Below, piece after piece: positions 782 to 22,296 of a DNA stretch of 30,776 bases. Source of the DNA: Oscillospiraceae bacterium (lineage in GTDB: Bacteria > Bacillota_A > Clostridia > Oscillospirales > CAG-272); NCBI GenBank assembly GCA_015063335.1, contig SVUH01000019.1, positions 1 to 30,776 of the forward strand, read 5' to 3'. Numbering within the stretch: the first letter of the stretch is position 1; each line of letters starts with the position of its first letter. Made by a program: the position numbers and the translations under genes. The notes under the pieces are model-generated. The model searched no databases. It was not told where the DNA came from and saw only the letters and a program-made list of their open reading frames with translations.

Positions 782-1216
782 GTGACTGTTTTAAGACTTA
801 AAGAAGAACACATATCGGCAGTTGCCGAGATAGAGAGGGCATGCTTTAGCGAGCCTTGGTCGGAGAGCGCGCTTCGCTTGCTCCTTGGCGACACGGCACT
901 TGGATTTGTCGCACTTACAAAGGACGGCGAGGTCGCCGCATACGTTGGAATGATGACTGTCGCTGACGAGGGACAGATAACCAACGTGGTAACACACCCC
1001 GACTATCGAAGATGCGGCTACGGAGCGGCTGTTCTTGACGAACTTCTTAACTTTGCCGCGCAAAACAGGATCAAGGAGATATACCTTGAGGTAAGACGTT
1101 CAAACGAGGCGGCACGCGCCTTGTACGAGACGCGCGGCTTTGAGTACGTGGGAGAGCGAAAGGGCTTTTACCGCTTTCCTCTCGAGGACGCCTTGATTAT
1201 GAAAAAATGTATCTAA
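782..1216 (+). CDS. rimI: ribosomal protein S18-alanine N-acetyltransferase RimI
   Basis: GNAT-fold acetyltransferase expected to acetylate the N-terminal alanine of ribosomal protein S18, or to act as a related protein N-acetyltransferase. About 144 residues, usual for RimI. The family start pattern LRLKEEHISAVAEIE then CFSEPWS is present. The acetyl-CoA loop is seen as HPDYRRCGYGAAVLDELL, and the C-terminal half has EVRRSNEAARALYETRGF. I chose the GTG at 782 because AAGGCGG (769-775) lies 6 nt upstream and the protein then begins just before the conserved LRL. A TTG at 746 would add 12 residues with no family match and a poorer site. It ends 12 bp before tsaD, the common rimI-tsaD pairing, but tsaB and tsaE, often next to them, are absent here. 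Confidence 0.9.
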   Translation: MTVLRLKEEHISAVAEIERACFSEPWSESALRLLLGDTALGFVALTKDGEVAAYVGMMTVADEGQITNVVTHPDYRRCGYGAAVLDELLNFAAQNRIKEIYLEVRRSNEAARALYETRGFEYVGERKGFYRFPLEDALIMKKCI

Positions 1217-6426: not shown

Positions 6427-7257
6427 TCAGGTAGTTACGTTGATGACTACTACTTCTTCGGGATAGATTATCTCAGCACCGTAGATGTGCAGACCTTTAA
6501 CGGCATCAGCAAATCTCTTTTCGGGACGGTATGCATCTATCTCGGAGAGCTGCTCGGCGAAGGCGATAGCACGTCTTGTACGCATCATGCATTTGTGGGT
6601 TACAATCGTGCCGTCACGCTCAGTTGCTACGTTGGGGGAGACGAACACCTTGCATCCGGCGATGCTGCCGATGCAGCCGTGCTCAAGAGAGTCGATGTTG
6701 TCTGTGGAGAGGGATATCTTTGCTTTGAGAATGAGAGATGCAACCATGGGAGTTACCTCAAGAACTACTCCTTCGCTGTCAGAAACGTTCTTCTCATAAA
6801 GTCTCTGGCGAGCCTCGATGATAGTGTTTATGATGGTTTCGGGTGTAGCCTGTGAAGCATCAAAATTACGAAGCTCTTCGCTTTTTGCAAGGCTGTAAAC
6901 GTACTTATCTGCGGCATCTGCAAGGCTGTTTGCGGCAACCTTCATAGCGGCTTCCATAAGACGGGGAGTGCACTGTGCGCGGTCAACATCGTCAATCTGG
7001 AAATTGAAGCACTTTGCCTGATCGATATAAAGCTCTTTTACAGTATCTGAAAGAGACTGGGGAGTATCCATATCGGAGTCTTTGGTATAATCGGTTACGT
7101 TTACCTTGCCAACTCCGCATATTTTTACGACGGAGCCCTTGTTCTTGATTTCGCCCTCGTACTCTCTCGTACAGTTTGAAACTGCTATGTACTTCCTGTC
7201 GAGAGCGGTGTAGAGATTTTCACTCCAAATAGTAGGTATAAAGTTTGAAATTGCCAT
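6427..7257 (-). CDS. major capsid protein, P22 coat-type (HK97 fold)
   Basis: Forms the icosahedral shell. The N-terminus MAISNFIPTIWSENLYTAL, then EGEIKNKGSVVKICGVG and VTDYTKDSDMDTPQSLSDT, are characteristic of the P22 gp5-like coat family found in Firmicute phages. This is followed by the spine-helix region (LMEAAMKVAANSLADAADKYV) and a beta-rich C-terminal half (VVLEVTPMVASLIL, IAGCKVFVSPNV, AFAEQLSEIDAYRPEKRF). At 276 residues it is much shorter than P22 gp5 (430), so it probably lacks the inserted I-domain. The ATG at 7255-7257 follows AGAAAGGAAT. The scaffold gene lies immediately upstream, as expected for a coat that needs scaffold-assisted assembly. Confidence 0.88.
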   Translation of the reverse strand: MAISNFIPTIWSENLYTALDRKYIAVSNCTREYEGEIKNKGSVVKICGVGKVNVTDYTKDSDMDTPQSLSDTVKELYIDQAKCFNFQIDDVDRAQCTPRLMEAAMKVAANSLADAADKYVYSLAKSEELRNFDASQATPETIINTIIEARQRLYEKNVSDSEGVVLEVTPMVASLILKAKISLSTDNIDSLEHGCIGSIAGCKVFVSPNVATERDGTIVTHKCMMRTRRAIAFAEQLSEIDAYRPEKRFADAVKGLHIYGAEIIYPEEVVVINVTT

Positions 7258-7296
7258 AATAAATAATTCCTTTCTTGAATAAAAATATAATTTTTG

Positions 7297-7893
7297 TTAG
7301 TTCCATTTTTTCATGGATTCAATAATTTTTGAATAATTAGCTTTTACTTCGCTTCGTGACATACTTCTTACCTCGTCGGGCGAAAAGTATTCCTTTGAGG
7401 AGTTCGTGCCTACGCGCCCGGAGGAGCTTCCGGCATTGCGCTCGTTGACAGTCTTGGCTGCCATTTCTCTCTGATATACTCTTTGTCGGTAGAGCGCATA
7501 GGAAGCGGCAAGAGAATTTCCTGCGCGAACGCTGTCCCAAACGCTGTCGGGAAGCGTTTTTAGATCTGTGTTTGGGAATACGTCGAAGAACTCACCGAGC
7601 TGCTCGGAAATTCTCCGAGATTCCTCAGCTTGTGCGAGAAGGCGCTCGTTAAGCTCGCGCACCTTCTCGCGAAGCTCGCAGAGTTCAAGCGCAGTGTCCG
7701 CGCTTTCGTCTGCATCCGTCTTCTCGTCCGATTCCGTGCTTTCGTCTGCTTCCGTGTCCTTTTGACTATCGGTAGTATTGTCCTCTACGGTGCAAACGTC
7801 GTCCTCGGAGAAGAACACGCCCTCAACGGCGGTGTCTTCCTCTTCTACGAATGCTTCCTCGTAGGGGATCGCTTGGTTAAACGGCATATCCAT
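7297..7893 (-). CDS. phage scaffolding protein
   Basis: 198-residue protein expected to direct procapsid assembly and then leave. Residues about 11-68 are extremely acidic and Ser/Thr/Asp/Glu-rich. About 68-100 is a predicted coiled coil (LCELREKVRELNERLLAQAE). The C-terminus carries FSPDEVRSMSRSEVKANYSK followed by basic residues (MKKWN), typical of the coat-binding end of scaffolds in Firmicute phages. The ATG at 7891-7893 is preceded by AGAAAGGAG and overlaps the portal stop by 17 nt, suggesting coupled translation. No protease gene is nearby, which fits the P22 mode where scaffold is released rather than digested. Confidence 0.82.
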   Translation of the reverse strand: MDMPFNQAIPYEEAFVEEEDTAVEGVFFSEDDVCTVEDNTTDSQKDTEADESTESDEKTDADESADTALELCELREKVRELNERLLAQAEESRRISEQLGEFFDVFPNTDLKTLPDSVWDSVRAGNSLAASYALYRQRVYQREMAAKTVNERNAGSSSGRVGTNSSKEYFSPDEVRSMSRSEVKANYSKIIESMKKWN

Positions 7894-9433
7894 GCTCAGT
7901 CTCCTTTCTTGACTCCAATTCCTCCATCAGAGCCTCCTTGTTTTGGACGAGCCCCGCAGGGAGTCTGCGAATGTACTCAACGGGAGTTATATAGCCCTTA
8001 TCAAGGAGCTTGTCGAGAATGTTTTGCGACGCCACTGCACTGTACCTCGTTATCTCGGTAACGTCAACGCGGGCGCTTATCGCAGCCTTGCGCAGGCTCT
8101 CTACGTCTACGGGCAGAGAGCTTACGCTTGCGCCGTCCTTGCAGGGAAGCAAACGGCCATCGCCGTAGTAGGCGCATATCATATCCACCCAGATCGCGGC
8201 GAGCCGCTCGATAGACTCGTAGAAGGAATAGCGCACGTTGTCAAGTGCTATACGGGAGGTTTCCTGGAGCGCAAGGATCGCGCTCGTGTTTCTTGCCTCC
8301 ATATTTCCGAGAGCGGACTCGGTAGCACCCATAAGCTCCTTCGTAAGCGTTACGGCGCTGTTTATAAGCTCCATAAAGCCGTTTTGCATTTCTCCCGTAC
8401 CTACGACCGAAACGGCATCGGAAATATTTCCGCCGCCCATGGCGGCAATAGCCTCTCCTATCTCGTTAGACCATTCGGGAATACGGGATTTGTCATAGAT
8501 GACCTTTGAGAATGCAGTATCCGTCATGTGCTTCATCGCCATAGCGTAGGCTCTGTTTATGAACTTCTGATTGGGTATCATAGAGCTTACGGGAGACGAG
8601 CCGTGGAAGCTGTCCTTTGAGCGAGTCCAGCTGAAGGTGACTATGGGGTAGAGTCGGCATGAGGTGTGAGCGCGCTTGATAACGCAATCGCGCGTTGATT
8701 TCTCGAAGCACACCTCATCGTTCTCGCGCCAGAATTTAATTATAAAGGTTGCCTTTTCCTCGTCCTCACCCTCAAGCTCCAAGGTGCTCAGAGTACCTGA
8801 ATTTACAAAGTTGTCGTCTCTGACTATCTTCGCAACGTCGTCCTCGGGTATCCCGTTTTCACGAGCCTCTCTGCGAAGAGACAGCACGGAGCTTCTTCCG
8901 GAGATTATGACGTATTCCTGAGACTGTATGTCGTGCTTGTTTACGTCTGACGGAAAAATGCACGTCGCGTCCGCAATGTCGGTGACTATATCTCCTGCGT
9001 ATTCTCCCGCGCCCTGAGCGTTAGTATCCCAATAGCAGTAAAGCGCACCGTCACCCATGACGGCAGCATCCGTCAGAAGCGAGAATATTTTTGAGTCCAT
9101 AGCGGACTTTTCCCAACGGTACGCGGTATTTGCGTTGAGAGCGGTGATAAGAGCCTCGGCGCGCTCGCGTTCTTCCCTTGTGTAAAAGGGAAGATTTTCG
9201 TCCGTGAAGCGTATTGAGAGATTGGTCGTGGCTACGGAGCATACAAGATAATCAACAACTCGCCTTATGATATTAAAGACGGGATGCGGAAGCTCAGCGC
9301 TGTCATTTGAGCTCCACTGCTCGCCGCGGTAAAAGGCTTGATTTTTTCGCGCGCTCTCGTAGAGTCCGATTCGACGCTTGTATGTCTTGCCGGATTCGTA
9401 CTGCTGCCACGCTTTGTTTTTGTGATAATTCAT
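7877..9433 (-). CDS. phage portal protein
   Basis: Dodecameric ring at one capsid vertex through which DNA enters; it docks TerL and later the neck proteins. It is 518 residues from the ATG at 9431-9433, chosen because AGAAAGGAAG precedes it. The longer frame to 9484 opens with a non-conserved stretch. Family-like features are an N-terminal RRIGLYESARKNQAFYRGEQW block, the core IIKFWRENDEVCFEKS and LYPIVTFSWTRSKDSFHGSS, the helical stem SSMIPNQKFINRAYAMAMKH, and the crown region with IALDNVRYSFYESIERLAAI. The C-terminus ends DKLLDKGYITPVEYIRRLP. Its end overlaps the scaffold start by 17 nt, and 73 bp separate it from the neck gene upstream. No frameshift is seen. Confidence 0.87.
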   Translation of the reverse strand: MNYHKNKAWQQYESGKTYKRRIGLYESARKNQAFYRGEQWSSNDSAELPHPVFNIIRRVVDYLVCSVATTNLSIRFTDENLPFYTREERERAEALITALNANTAYRWEKSAMDSKIFSLLTDAAVMGDGALYCYWDTNAQGAGEYAGDIVTDIADATCIFPSDVNKHDIQSQEYVIISGRSSVLSLRREARENGIPEDDVAKIVRDDNFVNSGTLSTLELEGEDEEKATFIIKFWRENDEVCFEKSTRDCVIKRAHTSCRLYPIVTFSWTRSKDSFHGSSPVSSMIPNQKFINRAYAMAMKHMTDTAFSKVIYDKSRIPEWSNEIGEAIAAMGGGNISDAVSVVGTGEMQNGFMELINSAVTLTKELMGATESALGNMEARNTSAILALQETSRIALDNVRYSFYESIERLAAIWVDMICAYYGDGRLLPCKDGASVSSLPVDVESLRKAAISARVDVTEITRYSAVASQNILDKLLDKGYITPVEYIRRLPAGLVQNKEALMEELESRKETEHGYAV

Positions 9434-9506
9434 TTTTCTTCCTTTCTGTAATAATAATGATTGTAGATCGACGGATCGCCACACGCAAAGCGGGAAGAGA
9501 CGCGGC

Positions 9507-11177
9507 TCACTTTACTGCCAGAGATGCCGAGACTATTCTTTGGCGTGCTTTCCCGTCCGCAAAAATGCTTGCGCTCACACGCTGAAATCTGTTTGCTCGT
9601 GCTCGCTTTTTTTGCAATACCGAATTGGAGCCGTCCGTACCAAAGGTAAGCTCTCCTCGCAGAATGCTTTCGTCGTCCGAATGTAGATCTACCGTTATTT
9701 CTCCGTCAGAGACCTCTGTCGCAACGTATGATAATCTCTTTTTCTTTGGCGTTGAAAAGTCCTCGGGATGAGAGACGATTTTTCCTTGAATTATCTGCGA
9801 TCCCTCGTCGGTGACAAGATCGTCGTAAAACACGAAAATATTTTTCCCGTTATGGAAGGCGGCGTTGCCATCAACGTCAAAAAAGACGTAAGCGCATATA
9901 CCCGTATATCGAGTCCAAACGGATCTCTTGGGAGAATATACCCAGACTACGTCCCCCTCACCGGAGTATAGGAGAAGCTCGTCCTTTGCTTGCCAATAGT
10001 GTAGCTTACTGCTTAATAACCACTCGGGAGCAAGCAACGAATCTATGGCGTCGGAGATCGGATAAGCGTTGCACTCGTCCAGCTCGTCTGTGTTAGACGC
10101 GTAAGCGTATACACCGTCAGCTCCCACAGTGCAGGGCGTGTTTCCCATTACTGCCGTTCCTTGTGTTACTATCGATACGGTGGTATTGATATTCATGATG
10201 GGAAAGTCCTCTGTAGCGCAAGCGGAGCTGTCCGCCATCCAGACACCGCCCTCCGTGAAAATAAGCAGACGGTCAAAATGACGGGCAACGCCCTTTATGG
10301 GGTATCTGCCGTCACCCACGGTGAATTTGTGGTTGAGAGGAAAATAAATGGAGTCGCTGTCGGAATATACGCGGCGGCAGTCCTCAAGGTCGCTATCCGA
10401 TACGTAAGCACCGCTATACATTACGGCGCCGTTCCCGGCTCCGTAAAGAAACGGACGGCTGTTGCTTATTCCACCGAAAACCGTGGCGCGTGTGTTAGCC
10501 TTAATGGCAGAATCGGATATCTCTGTCGCGTATGTAAAGTATAGCTCAACTCTGTCGTTTTGTTTGAGACCTGATACGATCACAATGCTCGGATTTGAGC
10601 TTATCATGTAATTTTCGGAACTGATCAGCTCGCCGTTTACGTAAAGCGCTTCTATCGAGGCGATCGGACCGTCCGCATACAGCATAGAGGCGGTGCTTTT
10701 TGTGATCAGATAGCTTATACGCGCTCGGTTTGTGAGAGCGTTTCGGGGCTCGTTTATTTCTCCGATCTCCTCATCATGCCAATTCTTGCCGATGAGCGGC
10801 GCATAGCCGACGGCAGGGCGTACCGCATCAGAGCTTACCGCATAAATGTTATTTCCGTCGATCAGAAATAGAGATCTGCGATAGAAGAAGAAGCTTGCCG
10901 GTTTTCCCGAATTACCAATGGTAGCGATCTTTGACATTTCGTTATCCAGGTAGCTTATGGAATATACGTCAGCGCCCGCAAGCACGAAGATAAGGGGTAT
11001 GCCGCTAATCGTGCCTGACCATATTGCTCGTATCAATTTCGGCATGGTAGCAAGCTTTTGGTAGCCCGAGCGCTTTTGCAATGAGCCATCGGGCAGAAAT
11101 CTGAAATTGACTATGTCAGCAGCCCCCAGCTTATAGTCCTTCGTTCCAACCGCGCGTACGCCGTCAAACGGTATCAA
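9507..11177 (-). CDS. phage neck / tail-hub protein, P22 gp10-like beta-propeller
   Basis: 556-residue, beta-rich protein with repeated four-strand-like units, for example MPKLIRAIWSGTISGIPLIF, RRSLFLIDGNNIYAVSSD, RHFDRLLIFTEGGVWMADSS, TVGADGVYAYASNT, KDELLLYSGEGDVVWVYSPK. This pattern and the opening GSLQKRSGYQKL fit the propeller-like stabilisation/neck proteins of short-tailed phages (P22 gp10 type), which cap the portal. Gene order is unusual: it sits between terL and portal, whereas in P22 gp10 lies after the coat gene. The start is uncertain. The TTG at 11177 lacks a good ribosome site. An ATT at 11201 lies 6 nt after GAGGTGA and would add eight residues. The structural role is well supported, the exact name less so. 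Confidence 0.72.
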   Translation of the reverse strand: MIPFDGVRAVGTKDYKLGAADIVNFRFLPDGSLQKRSGYQKLATMPKLIRAIWSGTISGIPLIFVLAGADVYSISYLDNEMSKIATIGNSGKPASFFFYRRSLFLIDGNNIYAVSSDAVRPAVGYAPLIGKNWHDEEIGEINEPRNALTNRARISYLITKSTASMLYADGPIASIEALYVNGELISSENYMISSNPSIVIVSGLKQNDRVELYFTYATEISDSAIKANTRATVFGGISNSRPFLYGAGNGAVMYSGAYVSDSDLEDCRRVYSDSDSIYFPLNHKFTVGDGRYPIKGVARHFDRLLIFTEGGVWMADSSACATEDFPIMNINTTVSIVTQGTAVMGNTPCTVGADGVYAYASNTDELDECNAYPISDAIDSLLAPEWLLSSKLHYWQAKDELLLYSGEGDVVWVYSPKRSVWTRYTGICAYVFFDVDGNAAFHNGKNIFVFYDDLVTDEGSQIIQGKIVSHPEDFSTPKKKRLSYVATEVSDGEITVDLHSDDESILRGELTFGTDGSNSVLQKKRARANRFQRVSASIFADGKARQRIVSASLAVK

Positions 11178-11249
11178 GAACTCTTTTGTTTTGCTTGAAA
11201 TGATTTTTCACCTCACTTTCATGTGCTTTGTGTGTCACGGACATAAGGA

Positions 11250-12575
11250 TCAGTCGAAGAATGAAACCTTTTTTCGAGGTAGTATAAAGAAAGGCGCTGT
11301 CTCTCGCTCGGGAGGCGGGGCACATCTGCTCATAACTGCGTAGCGAAGCGCCTCGGGAGAGTGGGTGACCGAGTGGGGCTCGCTTGAAGCGTCTTCGCTT
11401 TTCGACGCGTCAAAGAGGAGAGCGGGCAGGCAACGTATAAGCTCGGGACAAGCACGGCTTATACGAATATGCGGCGCGCCGTCGGACGGGGAGAGATATT
11501 GCCTGAGCAATCGCCAACCGGGCACGCGTCTGTTGTCTGCGGGAAGCATGGGGGGCATTCCCGAAATCAACTGCATTATCTCAAAGCCGCTTCTTCCGCT
11601 GTCCTGCCGCCTGTTCCACAGATCGGGGGAGGCGACTGCAAACTCTACCTTTCGCCCTCTGCAAAGAGCTGCGACAGCTTCTCCTGCCTTGTTTAGCGTC
11701 AAGCCCGACACGCATTTTTCGGCGACAGCGTAAAGATTGCCGTGGATATCCACCGCGATAATATAAGCCGCCAGCATGTCAAAGCCGTAGTCAAACGCGG
11801 CAAAGTAGGTGACGTATTCGGGAATATCGGAGGGATCGCATACGTGCTTTTTCTCGTCAAATTCGGGGAAGAACTGCCCCTCGAATACGTCCCATCTGCC
11901 GTAAAGCCAGGCATCGCGAAGCCGCTCAGGAAGAGTCCGCAGAGATGCTACGTACTCGGGATCGGACTCGGTCAGCACCTCGTTATCGAAAACGAGAGCC
12001 TGAATAAATGCATAGTCCTCGGGGCGCTCGTCCTCGCGGAACTCGCGGTCAACAAAGAGTCGCTTCACCCAAGCATGGCCGATGCCGCCCGGATTGCAGG
12101 TAAGATACATGCGTCTTGGAAATTCCGACGTGCCGCGCAAGCACGCCTTGAAAATGGAAAATCGGAACTCACTCATGTGTGTAGCCTCGTCGATCGCAAT
12201 AACGTCGTATTCCTGTCCCTGATAACGAAGCACGTCTCGGTCGCAGCTGCAAAAACCGAGAAAAATGCGGCTTCCGCTGGGGAAGGTTAATGACTTTTCG
12301 CTCTCTGAATACTTCACGAGGTCGCCGTATTCACGAAGAAAGGGAATTACGTGATTTGAGCGAAGCTCGGGAAGCGTTCTTCGGACAAGCAGGCAACGAA
12401 GCCCCGGGTATCTCAGACACATGGCAACGAGTTTTCTGCGAAGTGCCCATGATTTTCCGCCGCCTCTCGCACCGCCGTAGGCTGTAAATCTTGCGCGGGA
12501 GTCGAAGAAAAGCTGTTGCTTGGGGTTCGGCTTGCCGCGTATCACCACTTTCCCACCGTTATTCGCCGTCGGCAT
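11250..12575 (-). CDS. terL: terminase large subunit TerL
   Basis: Motor and nuclease that translocates DNA into the procapsid and cuts the concatemer. 441 residues from the ATG at 12573-12575. The ATPase half has Walker A GGARGGGKS (34-42), Walker B DVIAIDE (124-130) and the coupling motif LTCNPGG (158-164). The RNase H-like nuclease half has Asp262 in AAFDYGFD and Asp318 in SPDLWNRR. In the third acidic position HSPEALRYAVM carries Glu408 where many relatives have Asp. All motifs needed for activity appear present. It overlaps terS by 17 nt. A TTG at 12588-12590 preceded by GGAGG at 12-nt spacing is an alternative start adding five residues. 72 bp separate it from the neck gene. Confidence 0.93.
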   Translation of the reverse strand: MPTANNGGKVVIRGKPNPKQQLFFDSRARFTAYGGARGGGKSWALRRKLVAMCLRYPGLRCLLVRRTLPELRSNHVIPFLREYGDLVKYSESEKSLTFPSGSRIFLGFCSCDRDVLRYQGQEYDVIAIDEATHMSEFRFSIFKACLRGTSEFPRRMYLTCNPGGIGHAWVKRLFVDREFREDERPEDYAFIQALVFDNEVLTESDPEYVASLRTLPERLRDAWLYGRWDVFEGQFFPEFDEKKHVCDPSDIPEYVTYFAAFDYGFDMLAAYIIAVDIHGNLYAVAEKCVSGLTLNKAGEAVAALCRGRKVEFAVASPDLWNRRQDSGRSGFEIMQLISGMPPMLPADNRRVPGWRLLRQYLSPSDGAPHIRISRACPELIRCLPALLFDASKSEDASSEPHSVTHSPEALRYAVMSRCAPPPERETAPFFILPRKKVSFFD

Positions 12576-12948
12576 AGATGTCGTGCTCAAAGCAGTATTT
12601 TACCTCCGTGCTCGCGGGGACTTCTTCATCGCATACGTAGAGCAGACGCTTTTTCATGTAAGTCGAGAGCAGATTTGGGGATATATCTGCGTTCAGTGCC
12701 TCGTCCTCAAAAACCGCGACCAGCCTGTCGTACTCGTCTGGGTTTATGAACTTCAATTCGAGCAGATCGGAAAGTCCCGATTTTACGTATCTGCAAAAGC
12801 CCGCAAGATTAGGGAAGCGATATTGTCGTTTTGCCTTTGTGCCGTCCTCGCGAGGAGCCGTGCGGCAGGATTCAATATACTTGTCCGCCATGCGGTAAAG
12901 CCTCCCGTCATCCAAAAGCTTTTTTATCTTGTTCTTCTTTTTCGGCAT
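12559..12948 (-). CDS. terS: terminase small subunit TerS (probable)
   Basis: 129-residue basic protein immediately upstream of terL, the standard place for the small subunit that recognises the packaging site. The N-terminus is Lys-rich (MPKKKNKIKKLLDDG), followed by a helical putative DNA-binding region (AGFCRYVKSGLSDLLELK) and a C-terminal acidic tail. The ATG at 12946-12948 follows AGAAAGGAG at good spacing; longer readings to 13065 add a stretch without family character. Its stop lies inside terL (17-nt overlap). It is the first gene of the cassette. The identity rests mainly on position and size, since TerS proteins diverge quickly. Confidence 0.75.
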   Translation of the reverse strand: MPKKKNKIKKLLDDGRLYRMADKYIESCRTAPREDGTKAKRQYRFPNLAGFCRYVKSGLSDLLELKFINPDEYDRLVAVFEDEALNADISPNLLSTYMKKRLLYVCDEEVPASTEVKYCFEHDIYADGE

Positions 12949-19878: not shown

Positions 19879-19907
19879 TTGATATTTCTGTTTTTATGTG
19901 ATATAAT
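19879..19907 (+). promoter_or_regulatory. strong sigma-A promoter of the structured RNA and SLOG gene
   Basis: TTGATA (19879-19884), 17-bp spacer, TATAAT (19902-19907), with an extended -10 TG (19899-19900). The predicted start is at 19913-19915, the first base of the closing helix of the RNA at 19914-20120. Confidence 0.82.
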
Positions 19908-19913
19908 AATCGT

Positions 19914-20120
19914 GCTCAACAAACTAAATAATGACGCAAAGCGGGTTTATTTTATCCAATGGATAAGTATACTCTTTTTTGGTCATACTCACTTTACGAA
20001 TTTGATAAAAATGCAAATTCTATTTATGTGAGTGTGATTAATCCCATTTTGCGTAAAGTTTGTTGAGCGACAAATCGGAGTTTGCGTTTTTTGTGCGTGA
20101 CTTCGGTCGCGCACTTTTTT
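19914..20120 (+). ncRNA. candidate structured RNA or riboswitch-like leader, class unknown
   Basis: A 5' closing helix (GCTCAACAAACT, 19914-19925, with AGTTTGTTGAGC, 20057-20068) starts at the predicted transcription start. Inside, ACGCAAAG (19934-19941) pairs with TTTTGCGT (20047-20054), GGG (19943-19945) with CCC (20043-20045), and TTA (19947-19949) with TAA. A hairpin TTATCC/GGATAA (19952-19966) and an arm ACTCAC/GTGAGT (19987-19992, 20028-20033) capped by AATTTG/CAAATT (19999-20004, 20014-20019) follow, forming a multibranch junction. After it comes a UUCG-capped terminator (20093-20120). A second TTTGCGT at 20081-20087 could compete for the ACGCAAA strand, as expected of a switch. It does not match any riboswitch consensus I know. 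It could act on the SLOG gene 26 nt downstream or be an independent small RNA. Confidence 0.65.
20093..20120 (+). terminator. UUCG-capped intrinsic terminator
   Basis: GTGCGTGAC (20093-20101) pairs with GTCGCGCAC (20106-20114) with one G-U wobble, closed by a C(TTCG)G tetraloop and followed by six T residues. It lies between the structured RNA and the ribosome site of the SLOG gene, so it either ends a separate RNA or is a regulated attenuator. Confidence 0.9.
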
Positions 20121-20146
20121 ATTTATATAAAGATAAGGAAACAAAC

Positions 20147-20476
20147 ATGAAGCTTTTAATAGTTGGTTCGAGGAGCATTACAGATTTTGATTTATCACAG
20201 TACATTTCCGACGATGTGGATATAATTATAAGCGGCGGTGCTAACGGTATCGACACGGTCGCTGAGCAATATGCAGACGGGCATAGGATATCCAAGATTA
20301 TAATTCGCCCACGTTATGAGCTTTATGGACGAGGCGCGCCGTTAAAGAGAAATCAAGAAATGGTTGATATGGCAGACGCCGTATTGGTTATATGGGACGG
20401 AAAGTCAAAAGGCACGCAATTCACAATGAATTATGCCCAAAAAGCAGGCAAACAGGTGACAGTGGTACAGATTTAA
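20147..20476 (+). CDS. small SLOG-family protein (DUF2493 / YspA-like)
   Basis: 109-residue Rossmann-like protein. It opens with LLIVGSRSITDF and carries the nucleotide-binding pattern DIIISGGANGIDTVAEQYA, then APLKRNQEMVDMADAVLVIW and the C-terminal GTQFTMNYAQKAGKQVTVVQ. These match SLOG-superfamily proteins (relatives of DprA, LOG and YpsA), thought to bind or process nucleotide-derived ligands; the exact ligand is unknown. The ATG at 20147 has AAGGA 7 nt upstream. A TTG at 20060 would extend the protein through the terminator hairpin and is rejected. Expression depends on reading through or around the terminator at 20093-20120, so the RNA at 19914-20120 may regulate it. A convergent hairpin separates it from the symporter gene. 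Confidence 0.82.
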   Translation: MKLLIVGSRSITDFDLSQYISDDVDIIISGGANGIDTVAEQYADGHRISKIIIRPRYELYGRGAPLKRNQEMVDMADAVLVIWDGKSKGTQFTMNYAQKAGKQVTVVQI

Positions 20477-20542: not shown

Positions 20543-22075
20543 TTATTTGTTAGCGTCCTCAAGTGCGTCCTCAAGTCTGTCCTTCTTTTTGCGGTTAGCG
20601 CATTTTGCAACAGTAGAAGCGAGAGCAAAGAGAGCGATCGCATTGGGGAGAACCATGAGGTAGTTAAAGAAGTCCATAAGCTCCCAAACGAGCGAAACCT
20701 TAAGCACAGAGCCTACGAATATAAAGACTATCGCTACGATGGAGAACACGATGAGAGACTTCTTCTTGAAAAGATACTCGAAGTTGATCTTGCCGAAGAG
20801 ATTCCAACCGATGATAGTGGAGAACGCGAAGAAGAACAGGCAAACCGCAACGAATACGTTACCGATAATAGTTCCTGCAGTAGTGCCGAATACCTCGCTG
20901 AATGCCGTTCCAAACGCGGTCTGGGCAAGCGTATCCTGCTTGAATATTGCAGCAACAGAAGCGAGAAGTCCCTGCGTGCCGTCGGCTCTGATGCCGTAGC
21001 TTGCAGCATCAGCAAGCTGACCGCCGCCTGCGTAGAGAGTGGAGATAACGACGAGAGCGGTAAGATTGAGAACAACGAAGGTGTCTATAAATACGCCTAT
21101 CATAGCGGTAACACCCTGATCGTGAGGATCCTTGACCTTTGCGAGAGCGTGAGCATGGGGAGTTGAACCCATACCTGCCTCATTCGAGAACAGACCGCGC
21201 TTAGCACCGTTGCTGAGAGCTGCCATGAGTGCCGCTCCGATACCACCGCCTATGAGCGCGTTGGGGTTGAACGCGTACTTGAATATCATTCCAAACGCCT
21301 CGGGGAGGTACTCAATACGGATAATTAGAACGAAAAGCGCGCCTACGATATAAAGCCCTGCCATAACGGGAACTATCTTTTCGGTTACGGACGCGATGCG
21401 GTTTACGCCGCCGAGGAAGATAACTGCGGAAAGAATTGCCACGACTGCACCTACTACGAGAGCGATGGTGTTTACTTCAAAACCACCAAGGTCAAAGCTG
21501 TGACTCCAGCCCGAGGTCTGCGTGATCGCGTTGCTTACAACGCCGCCGATGGAGTTGGACTGAACCATAGCGCCCATAAATCCGAGGGAAAGGATAGTAG
21601 CAACTGCGAAGAAGCCTGCTAAGAACTTACCGAACTTGCCTTTGAATGCCGCTTTGATGTAGTAGATAGGGCCGCCCGCAACCGAGCCGTCGGGGTTTAC
21701 CACGCGAGTTTTCTGCGCGAGTACTGCCTCAGCATAGATCGTTGCCATTCCGAGAAATGCGATAACCCACATCCAGAAGATAGCACCGGGGCCTCCGATA
21801 AGGATAGCGCCGCATGCACCTACGATGTTACCTGTACCGACCTGAGCCGCGATAGCGGTCGCCAAAGCCTGGAACGAGGAAAGACCGCCCTCTTGCTTAC
21901 CGCCGCGAAGAGAGAAGTTGCCGAATACCTTCTTTATACCCTCGCCGAAGCAACGCACCTGAACGAACTTTGTTCTGATGGTAAAGAAAAGACCAACTCC
22001 GATAAGGAGTATCAAGAGAATGTAGTTAGACAGGTAGCCGTTTACCGTGCTAACAAATTTTTCAAAAGCTTCCAT
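20543..22075 (-). CDS. sodium:alanine/glycine symporter (AGCS family)
   Basis: Sodium-coupled importer of alanine or glycine, 510 residues with about 11 membrane helices, typical of AGCS (AgcS/AlsT-like). Signatures: ALATAIAAQVGTGNIVGACG in the first unwound helix region, GGPGAIFWMWVIAFLG, AGGPIYYIKAAFKGK, and GLFSNEAGMGSTPHAHALAK. The ATG at 22073-22075 follows AAGGAGG by 4 nt. The roughly 215-nt leader carries a glycine riboswitch with a terminator immediately before the ribosome site, which points to glycine as the physiological substrate and suggests uptake is shut off when glycine is plentiful. The C-terminal tail is short and charged (KKKDRLEDALEDANK). Confidence 0.93.
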   Translation of the reverse strand: MEAFEKFVSTVNGYLSNYILLILLIGVGLFFTIRTKFVQVRCFGEGIKKVFGNFSLRGGKQEGGLSSFQALATAIAAQVGTGNIVGACGAILIGGPGAIFWMWVIAFLGMATIYAEAVLAQKTRVVNPDGSVAGGPIYYIKAAFKGKFGKFLAGFFAVATILSLGFMGAMVQSNSIGGVVSNAITQTSGWSHSFDLGGFEVNTIALVVGAVVAILSAVIFLGGVNRIASVTEKIVPVMAGLYIVGALFVLIIRIEYLPEAFGMIFKYAFNPNALIGGGIGAALMAALSNGAKRGLFSNEAGMGSTPHAHALAKVKDPHDQGVTAMIGVFIDTFVVLNLTALVVISTLYAGGGQLADAASYGIRADGTQGLLASVAAIFKQDTLAQTAFGTAFSEVFGTTAGTIIGNVFVAVCLFFFAFSTIIGWNLFGKINFEYLFKKKSLIVFSIVAIVFIFVGSVLKVSLVWELMDFFNYLMVLPNAIALFALASTVAKCANRKKKDRLEDALEDANK

Positions 22076-22125: not shown

Positions 22126-22159
22126 CTCGTGAAGAAAACAATACAGACATATTTTGTCT

Positions 22160-22241
22160 GCTCTGTCCTTTTGCCTGAGAGATTCGGCGAATATCGCCTT
22201 GCACCTTCGGCACTCCGTACAAAACGGAGATTCTCCAGAGC
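22160..22241 (-). promoter_or_regulatory. glycine riboswitch, single aptamer
   Basis: Read on the minus strand, the segment holds GCTCTGGAGA, GTGCCGAAGGTGCAAG, a GGCGA/TCGCC hairpin arm, AATCTCTCAGGCAAAAGGAC and the closing CAGAGC, all core glycine-aptamer elements in the right order. Only one copy of the CCGAAGG and CTCAGG cores is present, so it is a singlet rather than the tandem form. A small hairpin CAGACA/TGTCTG (22144-22160) directly follows and may play the part of a vestigial partner aptamer. The downstream gene is a glycine/alanine symporter. Confidence 0.93.
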
Positions 22242-22296
22242 CCCTCCGCCAACGGTTTCTCGTAAGAAGATCCCGAAGACTTCAACGGTTTAACAT

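What the first reader, a model, noticed from the sequence alone, without database searches (positions are those of the whole stretch)
19914..20120. Undescribed structured RNA with its own promoter and UUCG terminator ahead of a SLOG gene
A near-consensus promoter with extended -10 would start transcription at the first base of a 12-bp closing helix whose partner lies about 140 nt downstream. Inside are a long second helix, a hairpin and a two-part arm forming a multibranch junction. A C(UUCG)G terminator then precedes a small SLOG/DUF2493 gene. The strand ACGCAAA can pair with either of two TTTGCGT copies (20048-20054 and 20081-20087), which suggests a switch. SLOG proteins bind nucleotide-like ligands, so a nucleotide-sensing riboswitch or a small regulatory RNA is attractive. 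I recognise no known class.
Basis: partly seen in the sequence, partly recalled or inferred. Interest (0 to 1): 0.72.

Follow-up and report, generated by a model that had tools for sequence, protein, structure and literature searches.

The report
Multicopy switch-like leader RNA family
This is one copy of an RNA leader family that we could not find described, with its own promoter and terminator, standing in front of many different genes in gut Clostridia known from metagenomes, where it probably decides whether each gene is read.

Summary
Window 19914-20120 is a strongly folded RNA (z -8) with a near-consensus promoter and a UUCG terminator, and no Rfam 15 match. It is one copy of a family: a covariance model built here matches 88 of 146 genomes sampled from one family, 70 of 197 of its order, and only the centre genome among 299 of the phylum; four rich genomes hold 11-13 matches each. 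SLOG is one of many downstream genes; others encode BspA-like repeat proteins, lipoproteins, zinc ribbons and small Cys-rich proteins.

An SD and ORF follow the terminator in 129 of 150 high-scoring copies (2 of 150 in a mirror-image control), so it is mainly a cis-acting leader. The linker before the terminator has two overlapping, covarying partners: the apical-hairpin 3' strand (pseudoknot) and the terminator loop (antiterminator). Own-versus-swapped pairing gives z -17.6 and -15.3; a control gives 0.3. I infer attenuation: pseudoknot gives termination, antiterminator gives read-through. Signal and polarity are unknown, and in the window's own nested fold the terminator beats the antiterminator. 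No expression data were available.

The parts
19879..19907 (+). promoter: TTGATA, 17-nt spacer, TATAAT with extended TG
   Evidence: in the family the -10 has at least 5 of 6 matches in 150 of 157 copies (49 of 157 when the 16 nt are shuffled), lies 5-6 nt before the model start in 143 of 157, and TG precedes it in 138 of 157
19914..19925 (+). P1 closing helix, 5' strand (T19913 can extend it by a wobble with G20069)
   Evidence: P1 cells are 99.8% paired and 6 of 10 pairs change on both sides in A6, an alignment fitted to P1
19934..19945 (+). P2 5' strand (ACGCAAAG and GGG)
   Evidence: MFE fold
19951..19967 (+). side hairpin of the long (L) type
   Evidence: MFE fold
19975..19980 (+). U6 junction strand; a run of at least 4 U lies in the interior of 92 of 102 A6 rows
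   Evidence: sequence
19979..19992 (+). P3 5' strand
   Evidence: MFE fold
19998..20020 (+). apical hairpin GAATTTG / CAAATTC with A-rich loop
20007..20021 (+). pseudoknot strand AAAAATGCAAATTCT, pairs with 20077-20091
20028..20041 (+). P3 3' strand
   Evidence: MFE fold
20043..20054 (+). P2 3' strand (CCC and TTTTGCGT)
   Evidence: MFE fold
20057..20068 (+). P1 closing helix, 3' strand
20069..20092 (+). linker; 20077-20091 pairs with the apical strand (pseudoknot), 20074-20081 pairs with the terminator loop 20100-20107 (antiterminator)
20093..20120 (+). intrinsic terminator: 9-bp stem, UUCG loop (20093-20114), T tract 20115-20120
20136..20139 (+). AGGA, likely ribosome-binding site
   Evidence: sequence
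20147..20476 (+). downstream gene: 109-aa SLOG protein (PF02481 above its cut-off; YAcAr and cpYpsA just below theirs)

Best explanation
The element is a self-contained transcription-attenuation leader. RNA polymerase starts at about the first base of P1. The P1-closed domain folds. The linker that emerges next can pair either with the apical-hairpin 3' strand (pseudoknot), which leaves the terminator free to form (gene off), or with the terminator loop (antiterminator), which lets transcription run into the gene (gene on). An unknown effector (small molecule or protein) acting on the P1-closed domain biases the choice. The same unit stands before many accessory, often surface or secreted, genes, so it probably reads out one shared cellular signal. 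Shown by comparative sequence analysis: the family, both pairings, the promoter, the terminator, and the position before genes. Inferred: transcription, switching, its polarity, and the effector.
For: Two covarying linker pairings. The mean duplex energy with own partners is lower than in all 5000 permutations: pseudoknot -17.63 against -14.46, z -17.6; antiterminator -11.67 against -9.46, z -15.3; control (apical strand x terminator loop) z 0.3; N 158. In 87 dereplicated copies z is -15.0, -13.4 and 0.3. Fixed-register counts on A6 (102 rows): P1 plus pseudoknot 95.3% of cells paired against 42-54% when slid, 15 of 24 pairs with two-sided changes; P1 plus antiterminator 92.2% against 38-48% when slid, 13 of 19 pairs with two-sided changes. 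The predicted best duplexes share at least 3 linker bases in 118 of 118 long-type and 38 of 38 short-type copies (2 of the 158 fall in neither length class). Position: an SD plus an ATG ORF within 100 nt downstream in 129 of 150 copies, against 2 of 150 for the mirror-image upstream side and 3 of 150 shuffled; the median distance of 26 nt leaves little room for a second promoter. Energies: the pseudoknot duplex is more stable than the apical hairpin in 158 of 158, and linker plus terminator folds more than 2 kcal/mol better than the terminator alone in 110 of 158.
Against: No transcript, termination or binding data. For the window itself the antiterminator, when forced, folds at -67.9 kcal/mol against -72.0 for the ordinary MFE that contains the terminator, and in 48 of 158 copies linker plus terminator is not more than 2 kcal/mol better than the terminator alone, so an antiterminated state would need kinetics or an effector. 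Energies ignore pseudoknot loop costs. In fixed register the antiterminator is weaker than the pseudoknot (70.4% and 87.0% of cells in its two parts against 92.0%). Some copies stand in tandem, each with its own promoter and terminator (L039 x2, L154 x3, L210 x2), so upstream copies do not directly precede a gene. In 11 of 156 copies no downstream CDS was found. L105 seems to have a promoter-like sequence between terminator and SLOG (read by eye). Permutation and shuffle controls do not fully remove relatedness among copies.
Confidence: 0.65

Rival explanations
1. Trans-acting small RNA: the terminated ~205-nt transcript is the functional product and acts elsewhere; downstream genes are expressed by leaky read-through.
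For: The units carry their own promoter and terminator; tandem units with no gene between them occur; an OFF state would make a discrete RNA.
Against: SD plus ORF follow at a near-fixed distance in 129 of 150 copies; a pairing of the linker with the terminator loop is conserved, which a pure sRNA would not need.
Confidence: 0.17
2. A version of the best explanation: the leader responds to a protein (antiterminator or repressor) rather than to a small molecule, bound at the apical hairpin or the P1-closed domain.
For: Besides P1, linker and terminator, the best conserved interior stretch is the apical hairpin and its loop, while the rest of the interior varies, which suits a protein site; many unrelated target genes suit a regulon protein.
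Against: No candidate protein was sought or identified; no co-occurrence test was run.
Confidence: 0.3
3. RNA plus SLOG protein pair, such as a defence module or a type III toxin-antitoxin-like pair with the RNA as antitoxin.
For: A terminator between RNA and gene resembles the type III layout (recalled); the SLOG protein matches ShosA weakly in PADLOC (28.4 bits, E 2.3e-7); the association survives to 44% SLOG identity (L084).
Against: About 137 of the 145 downstream proteins are not SLOG-like by eye; the descriptor scan found the unit in only 5 of 80 SLOG loci.
Confidence: 0.04
4. Mobile DNA element such as a MITE whose inverted ends look like an RNA helix.
For: Dispersed, multicopy, inverted ends of about 9-19 bp.
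Against: Copies diverge with compensating changes in P1 and in the pseudoknot, share orientation and spacing relative to genes, and carry a conserved promoter and terminator; two exact patterns in viral contigs gave 0 and a blastn of the window copy to plasmids gave no match.
Confidence: 0.03

Closest known systems
Transcription-terminating riboswitches (general kind)
   Same: 5' leader, closing helix P1, pseudoknot, terminator against antiterminator, compact structured domain
   Different: No ligand known; promoter, linker and terminator stem are themselves conserved in sequence; 11-13 matches in each of four genomes, before functionally unrelated genes
[quoted passage not shown]
   Same: A pairing of the terminator loop with upstream RNA is proposed to prevent termination
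   Different: There the loop pairs with a hairpin; here it pairs with a linker that also has a second, competing partner
Multi-gene riboswitch regulons such as c-di-GMP riboswitches in Clostridia (recalled)
   Same: One RNA class controlling many surface and accessory genes
   Different: No Rfam match of the copies tested, so not a recognisable member; architecture not compared in detail
Clostridiales-1 RNA (RF01699) and Gut-1 RNA (RF01706), listed in PMC2864571 (passages seen)
   Same: Gut Clostridia or gut-metagenome RNAs without known function
   Different: No leader copy tested matched either; Gut-1 occurs separately in L150, and as a weak hit outside the leader in L201

Membership tests
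Riboswitch (transcriptional) | Conserved structured domain in the 5' leader of genes | tested here: met
   transcription itself not shown
Riboswitch (transcriptional) | Two mutually exclusive structures coupled to a terminator | tested here: met
   by covariation and overlap of predicted duplexes only; not shown that they switch
Riboswitch (transcriptional) | Direct binding of a small-molecule ligand | not testable with these tools
   needs in-line probing or ITC
Riboswitch (transcriptional) | Highly conserved unpaired bases forming a pocket | tested here: inconclusive
   apical loop and U-rich strands are fairly conserved, the rest of the interior varies
Any Rfam 15 family | Covariance-model match at or above the gathering score | tested here: not met
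   window and 20 loci at gathering; window region and 20 further loci at relaxed E-values; no leader copy in them matched at gathering
Type III toxin-antitoxin | ToxN-family endoribonuclease gene downstream | tested here: not met
   downstream protein in the window is SLOG; ToxN is not among the families shown for 121 downstream proteins, of which the first 25 of 60 Pfam families were shown
Type III toxin-antitoxin | RNA made of short tandem repeats | not tested
   no repeat search was run
Trans-acting sRNA | Discrete transcript acting on distant targets | not testable with these tools
   no expression data

The most novel reading that the evidence does not exclude
A new riboswitch class, largely confined to one order of gut Clostridia known from metagenomes, in which a portable promoter-sensor-terminator module with a pseudoknot-against-antiterminator linker wires up to ten or more unrelated surface, secreted and nucleotide-binding-fold genes per genome to one undiscovered signal.
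Probability: 0.35. Interest if true: 0.85.

Novelty: new variant of a known kind. Interest (0 to 1): 0.72.

Why it matters
If right, it is an unrecognised class of gene-control RNA that is common in one order of gut and rumen Clostridia and controls part of their surface repertoire. The conserved linker with two covarying partners gives a directly testable mechanism, and the set of target genes gives a route to a new cellular signal.

Tried and rejected
SLOG-specific riboswitch: rejected on downstream gene diversity. Leader peptide or translated read-through from the GUG in the terminator stem: frame to the downstream ATG is spread 45/50/38, so rejected. Phage or plasmid carriage: two exact patterns in viral contigs gave 0 and a blastn of the window copy to plasmids gave no match; the phages collection was not searched, and exact patterns miss diverged copies. 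Defence link: 7 PADLOC families, at most 2 proteins each, among 121 downstream proteins. First MAFFT attempts: A2 was misregistered and A3 used wrong L105 coordinates; neither was used for conclusions. My descriptor scan also reported what I take for false positives in L025, L042, L071 and L082; it has no measured error rate. The first orientation control (14 copies) was invalid, because about 100 loci had too little upstream sequence; it was replaced by the symmetric control. Sensitivity limits: the 8-genome R1 search did not list the known L052 copy; the phylum search scored only 8 first-look candidates per genome, so diverged members may be missed. A U-A-U triple helix (U-rich strand with the A5-U5 pseudoknot) was considered and is untested.

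Literature: no description of this RNA in the search listings, nor in the passages seen of PMC8040213, PMC2864571 and PMC11109978. Supplementary tables of the large candidate-RNA surveys, most subscription papers and preprints were not searched, so an unnamed entry there cannot be excluded.

Full report
Observation. The window region 19914-20120 folds far better than shuffles (-72.9 kcal/mol against a mean of -40.26, z -8.06, 0 of 200 as low). It has an 11-of-12 promoter with extended TG and a UUCG terminator. No Rfam 15 family matches it at gathering score; the only match in the whole window is a glycine riboswitch elsewhere. A relaxed search of this region gave no credible match.

Finding relatives. 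The SLOG protein matches PF02481 and, just below cut-off, SLOG families. A scan of genome contigs kept the best 80 of 133 SLOG loci. Reading their upstream regions and running a descriptor scan over the 92 sequences then held (80 genome-contig loci, 11 viral loci, the window) showed the same plan in 5 of the 80: L021, L022, L039 (two tandem copies), L052 and L084. The scan also reported what I take for false positives in L025, L042, L071 and L082. Many other upstream regions look like divergently read regulator genes (impression, not counted). A further SLOG-linked copy is L105. A covariance model R1 from seven copies gave matches in 8 of 8 genomes searched; 27 matches reach E 1e-9, of which 6 are the SLOG-linked copies and 21 lie elsewhere; the known L052 copy was not listed. 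A second model R2 from 28 rows, one of them truncated, was used for surveys at E at most 1e-4: 88 of 146 genomes of the family, 70 of 197 of the order, 1 of 299 of the phylum, that one being the centre genome itself (strict filters, with 16, 12 and 8 first-look candidates scored per genome). Four rich genomes searched with 150 candidates each gave 13, 11, 13 and 11 matches, a few of them weak or antisense to a stronger one.

Sample. For the statistics I used loci regions fetched from the displayed list, best scores first, so the numbers describe high-scoring copies. R2 matches 102 places in those 100 loci (A6) and 61 in 55 other sources (A7), by construction. Of these 163 rows, two antisense rows and three repeats of the same segments were dropped, leaving 158.

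Architecture. Copies fall into a long type (190 nt or more) and a short type (under 185 nt). Both share a promoter whose -10 lies 5-6 nt before the model start in 143 of 157 copies (at least 5 of 6 matches in 150 of 157, against 49 of 157 when shuffled; TG in 138 of 157), a long P1, an inner helix, an apical hairpin with an A-rich loop, a linker and a terminator. The long type, to which the window belongs, adds a side hairpin and a U-rich junction strand before P3.

Two competing linker pairings. The linker 3' half pairs with the 3' strand of the apical hairpin; in the window 20077-20091 pairs with 20007-20021. The linker 5' half pairs with the terminator loop; in the window 20074-20081 pairs with 20100-20107. 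Both coevolve: the mean own-partner energy is lower than in all 5000 permutations (pseudoknot z -17.6, antiterminator z -15.3), while an unrelated pair of segments gives z 0.3; in 87 dereplicated copies the values are -15.0, -13.4 and 0.3. On A6 in fixed register P1 is 99.8% paired, the pseudoknot 92.0%, and the two parts of the antiterminator 70.4% and 87.0%; sliding the partners by 1-3 columns drops the whole structures from 95.3% to 42-54% and from 92.2% to 38-48%. The shuffle control there keeps column make-up but not relatedness, so it is supportive only. A6 was fitted to P1 and the terminator; the pseudoknot and antiterminator were not in the model. The two predicted duplexes share at least 3 linker bases in 156 of 156 copies with a type assigned, so they exclude each other at least in part.

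Position. Downstream of the terminator an SD and an ATG ORF begin within 100 nt in 129 of the 150 copies that have 280 nt on both sides; the mirror-image control gives 2 of 150 and shuffled sequence 3 of 150. With looser rules 145 of 156 copies have a downstream CDS within 200 nt, 128 of them within 60 nt, median 26 nt (a few of these ORFs may be spurious). Hence most downstream genes probably depend on read-through of the terminator. Tandem complete units occur (L039, L154, L210), and L105 seems to have a promoter-like sequence before SLOG (by eye).

Targets. I scanned 121 of the 145 downstream proteins (A8), leaving out 24, mostly repeats of the small Cys-rich and SLOG types. Pfam finds LRR_5 in 17, LRR_8 in 11, Zn_ribbon_3 and Zn_Ribbon_1 in 6 each, SHOCT in 5, three SLOG-type families in 3 each, and many singletons; 25 of 60 families were shown. 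NCBIfam agrees on repeat-rich surface proteins. By eye, many others begin with lipoprotein-like signal sequences, about 16 of 145 are a small Cys-rich protein with no Pfam match in the one example tested, and about 8 of 145 are SLOG-like. PADLOC matches are few.

Mechanism. The pseudoknot duplex (mean -17.6) is more stable than the apical hairpin (mean -4.5) in 158 of 158 copies, and linker plus terminator folds more than 2 kcal/mol better than the terminator alone in 110 of 158. For the window, reserving the pseudoknot strands and adding the duplex energy gives about -80 kcal/mol; the ordinary MFE with terminator is -72.0; forcing the antiterminator gives -67.9 (pseudoknot loop costs ignored). 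I therefore infer that the default is terminator on, and that an effector or folding kinetics that keep the linker from the apical strand would favour read-through. The opposite polarity, with an effector that stabilises the pseudoknot, fits the comparative data as well. Transcription, termination, polarity and effector are all untested.

Comparison and novelty. No Rfam match of any leader copy in the window or in the 40 loci tested. The papers and searches listed in Tried and rejected show no such RNA, but supplementary tables were not available. It works like a transcriptional riboswitch; whether it is one needs ligand evidence. Unusual points are the conserved promoter, linker and terminator stem, the number of copies per genome, and the diversity of targets.

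Noticed in passing
window 6427-12590 (-): Phage head module (major head, portal, structural protein, terminase large subunit by PHROGs) among what look like host genes; only 8 ORFs were scanned, and no search for tail or integrase genes was made. A prophage remnant or gene-transfer-agent-like cluster is possible.
   Followed up: partly
window 22153-22248 (-): Glycine riboswitch RF00504 (67.8 bits) upstream of an ORF at 20543-22075 (-) that looks like an amino-acid/cation symporter (by eye).
   Followed up: no
L210:848-1054:+ and similar downstream genes: Small protein family with a conserved CLGNGEQGFECCCDECDYYLLCFPEFD-like core, no Pfam match in the example tested, about 16 times behind this leader; possibly metal binding.
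   Followed up: no
L154:1501-2341 (-): Three complete leader units in tandem, followed on the same strand by a small ORF and a tRNA gene at 1089-1160 (-).
   Followed up: no
L150:282-362 (+): A Gut-1 RNA (RF01706, 61.2 bits) near a leader copy, in a genome reached here: a lead to a host of this gut RNA family.
   Followed up: no
L334:2230-2508 (-) and 12516-12860 (-): Two similar small proteins, each behind a leader copy; the listed ORFs run into the leader at their 5' ends.
   Followed up: no
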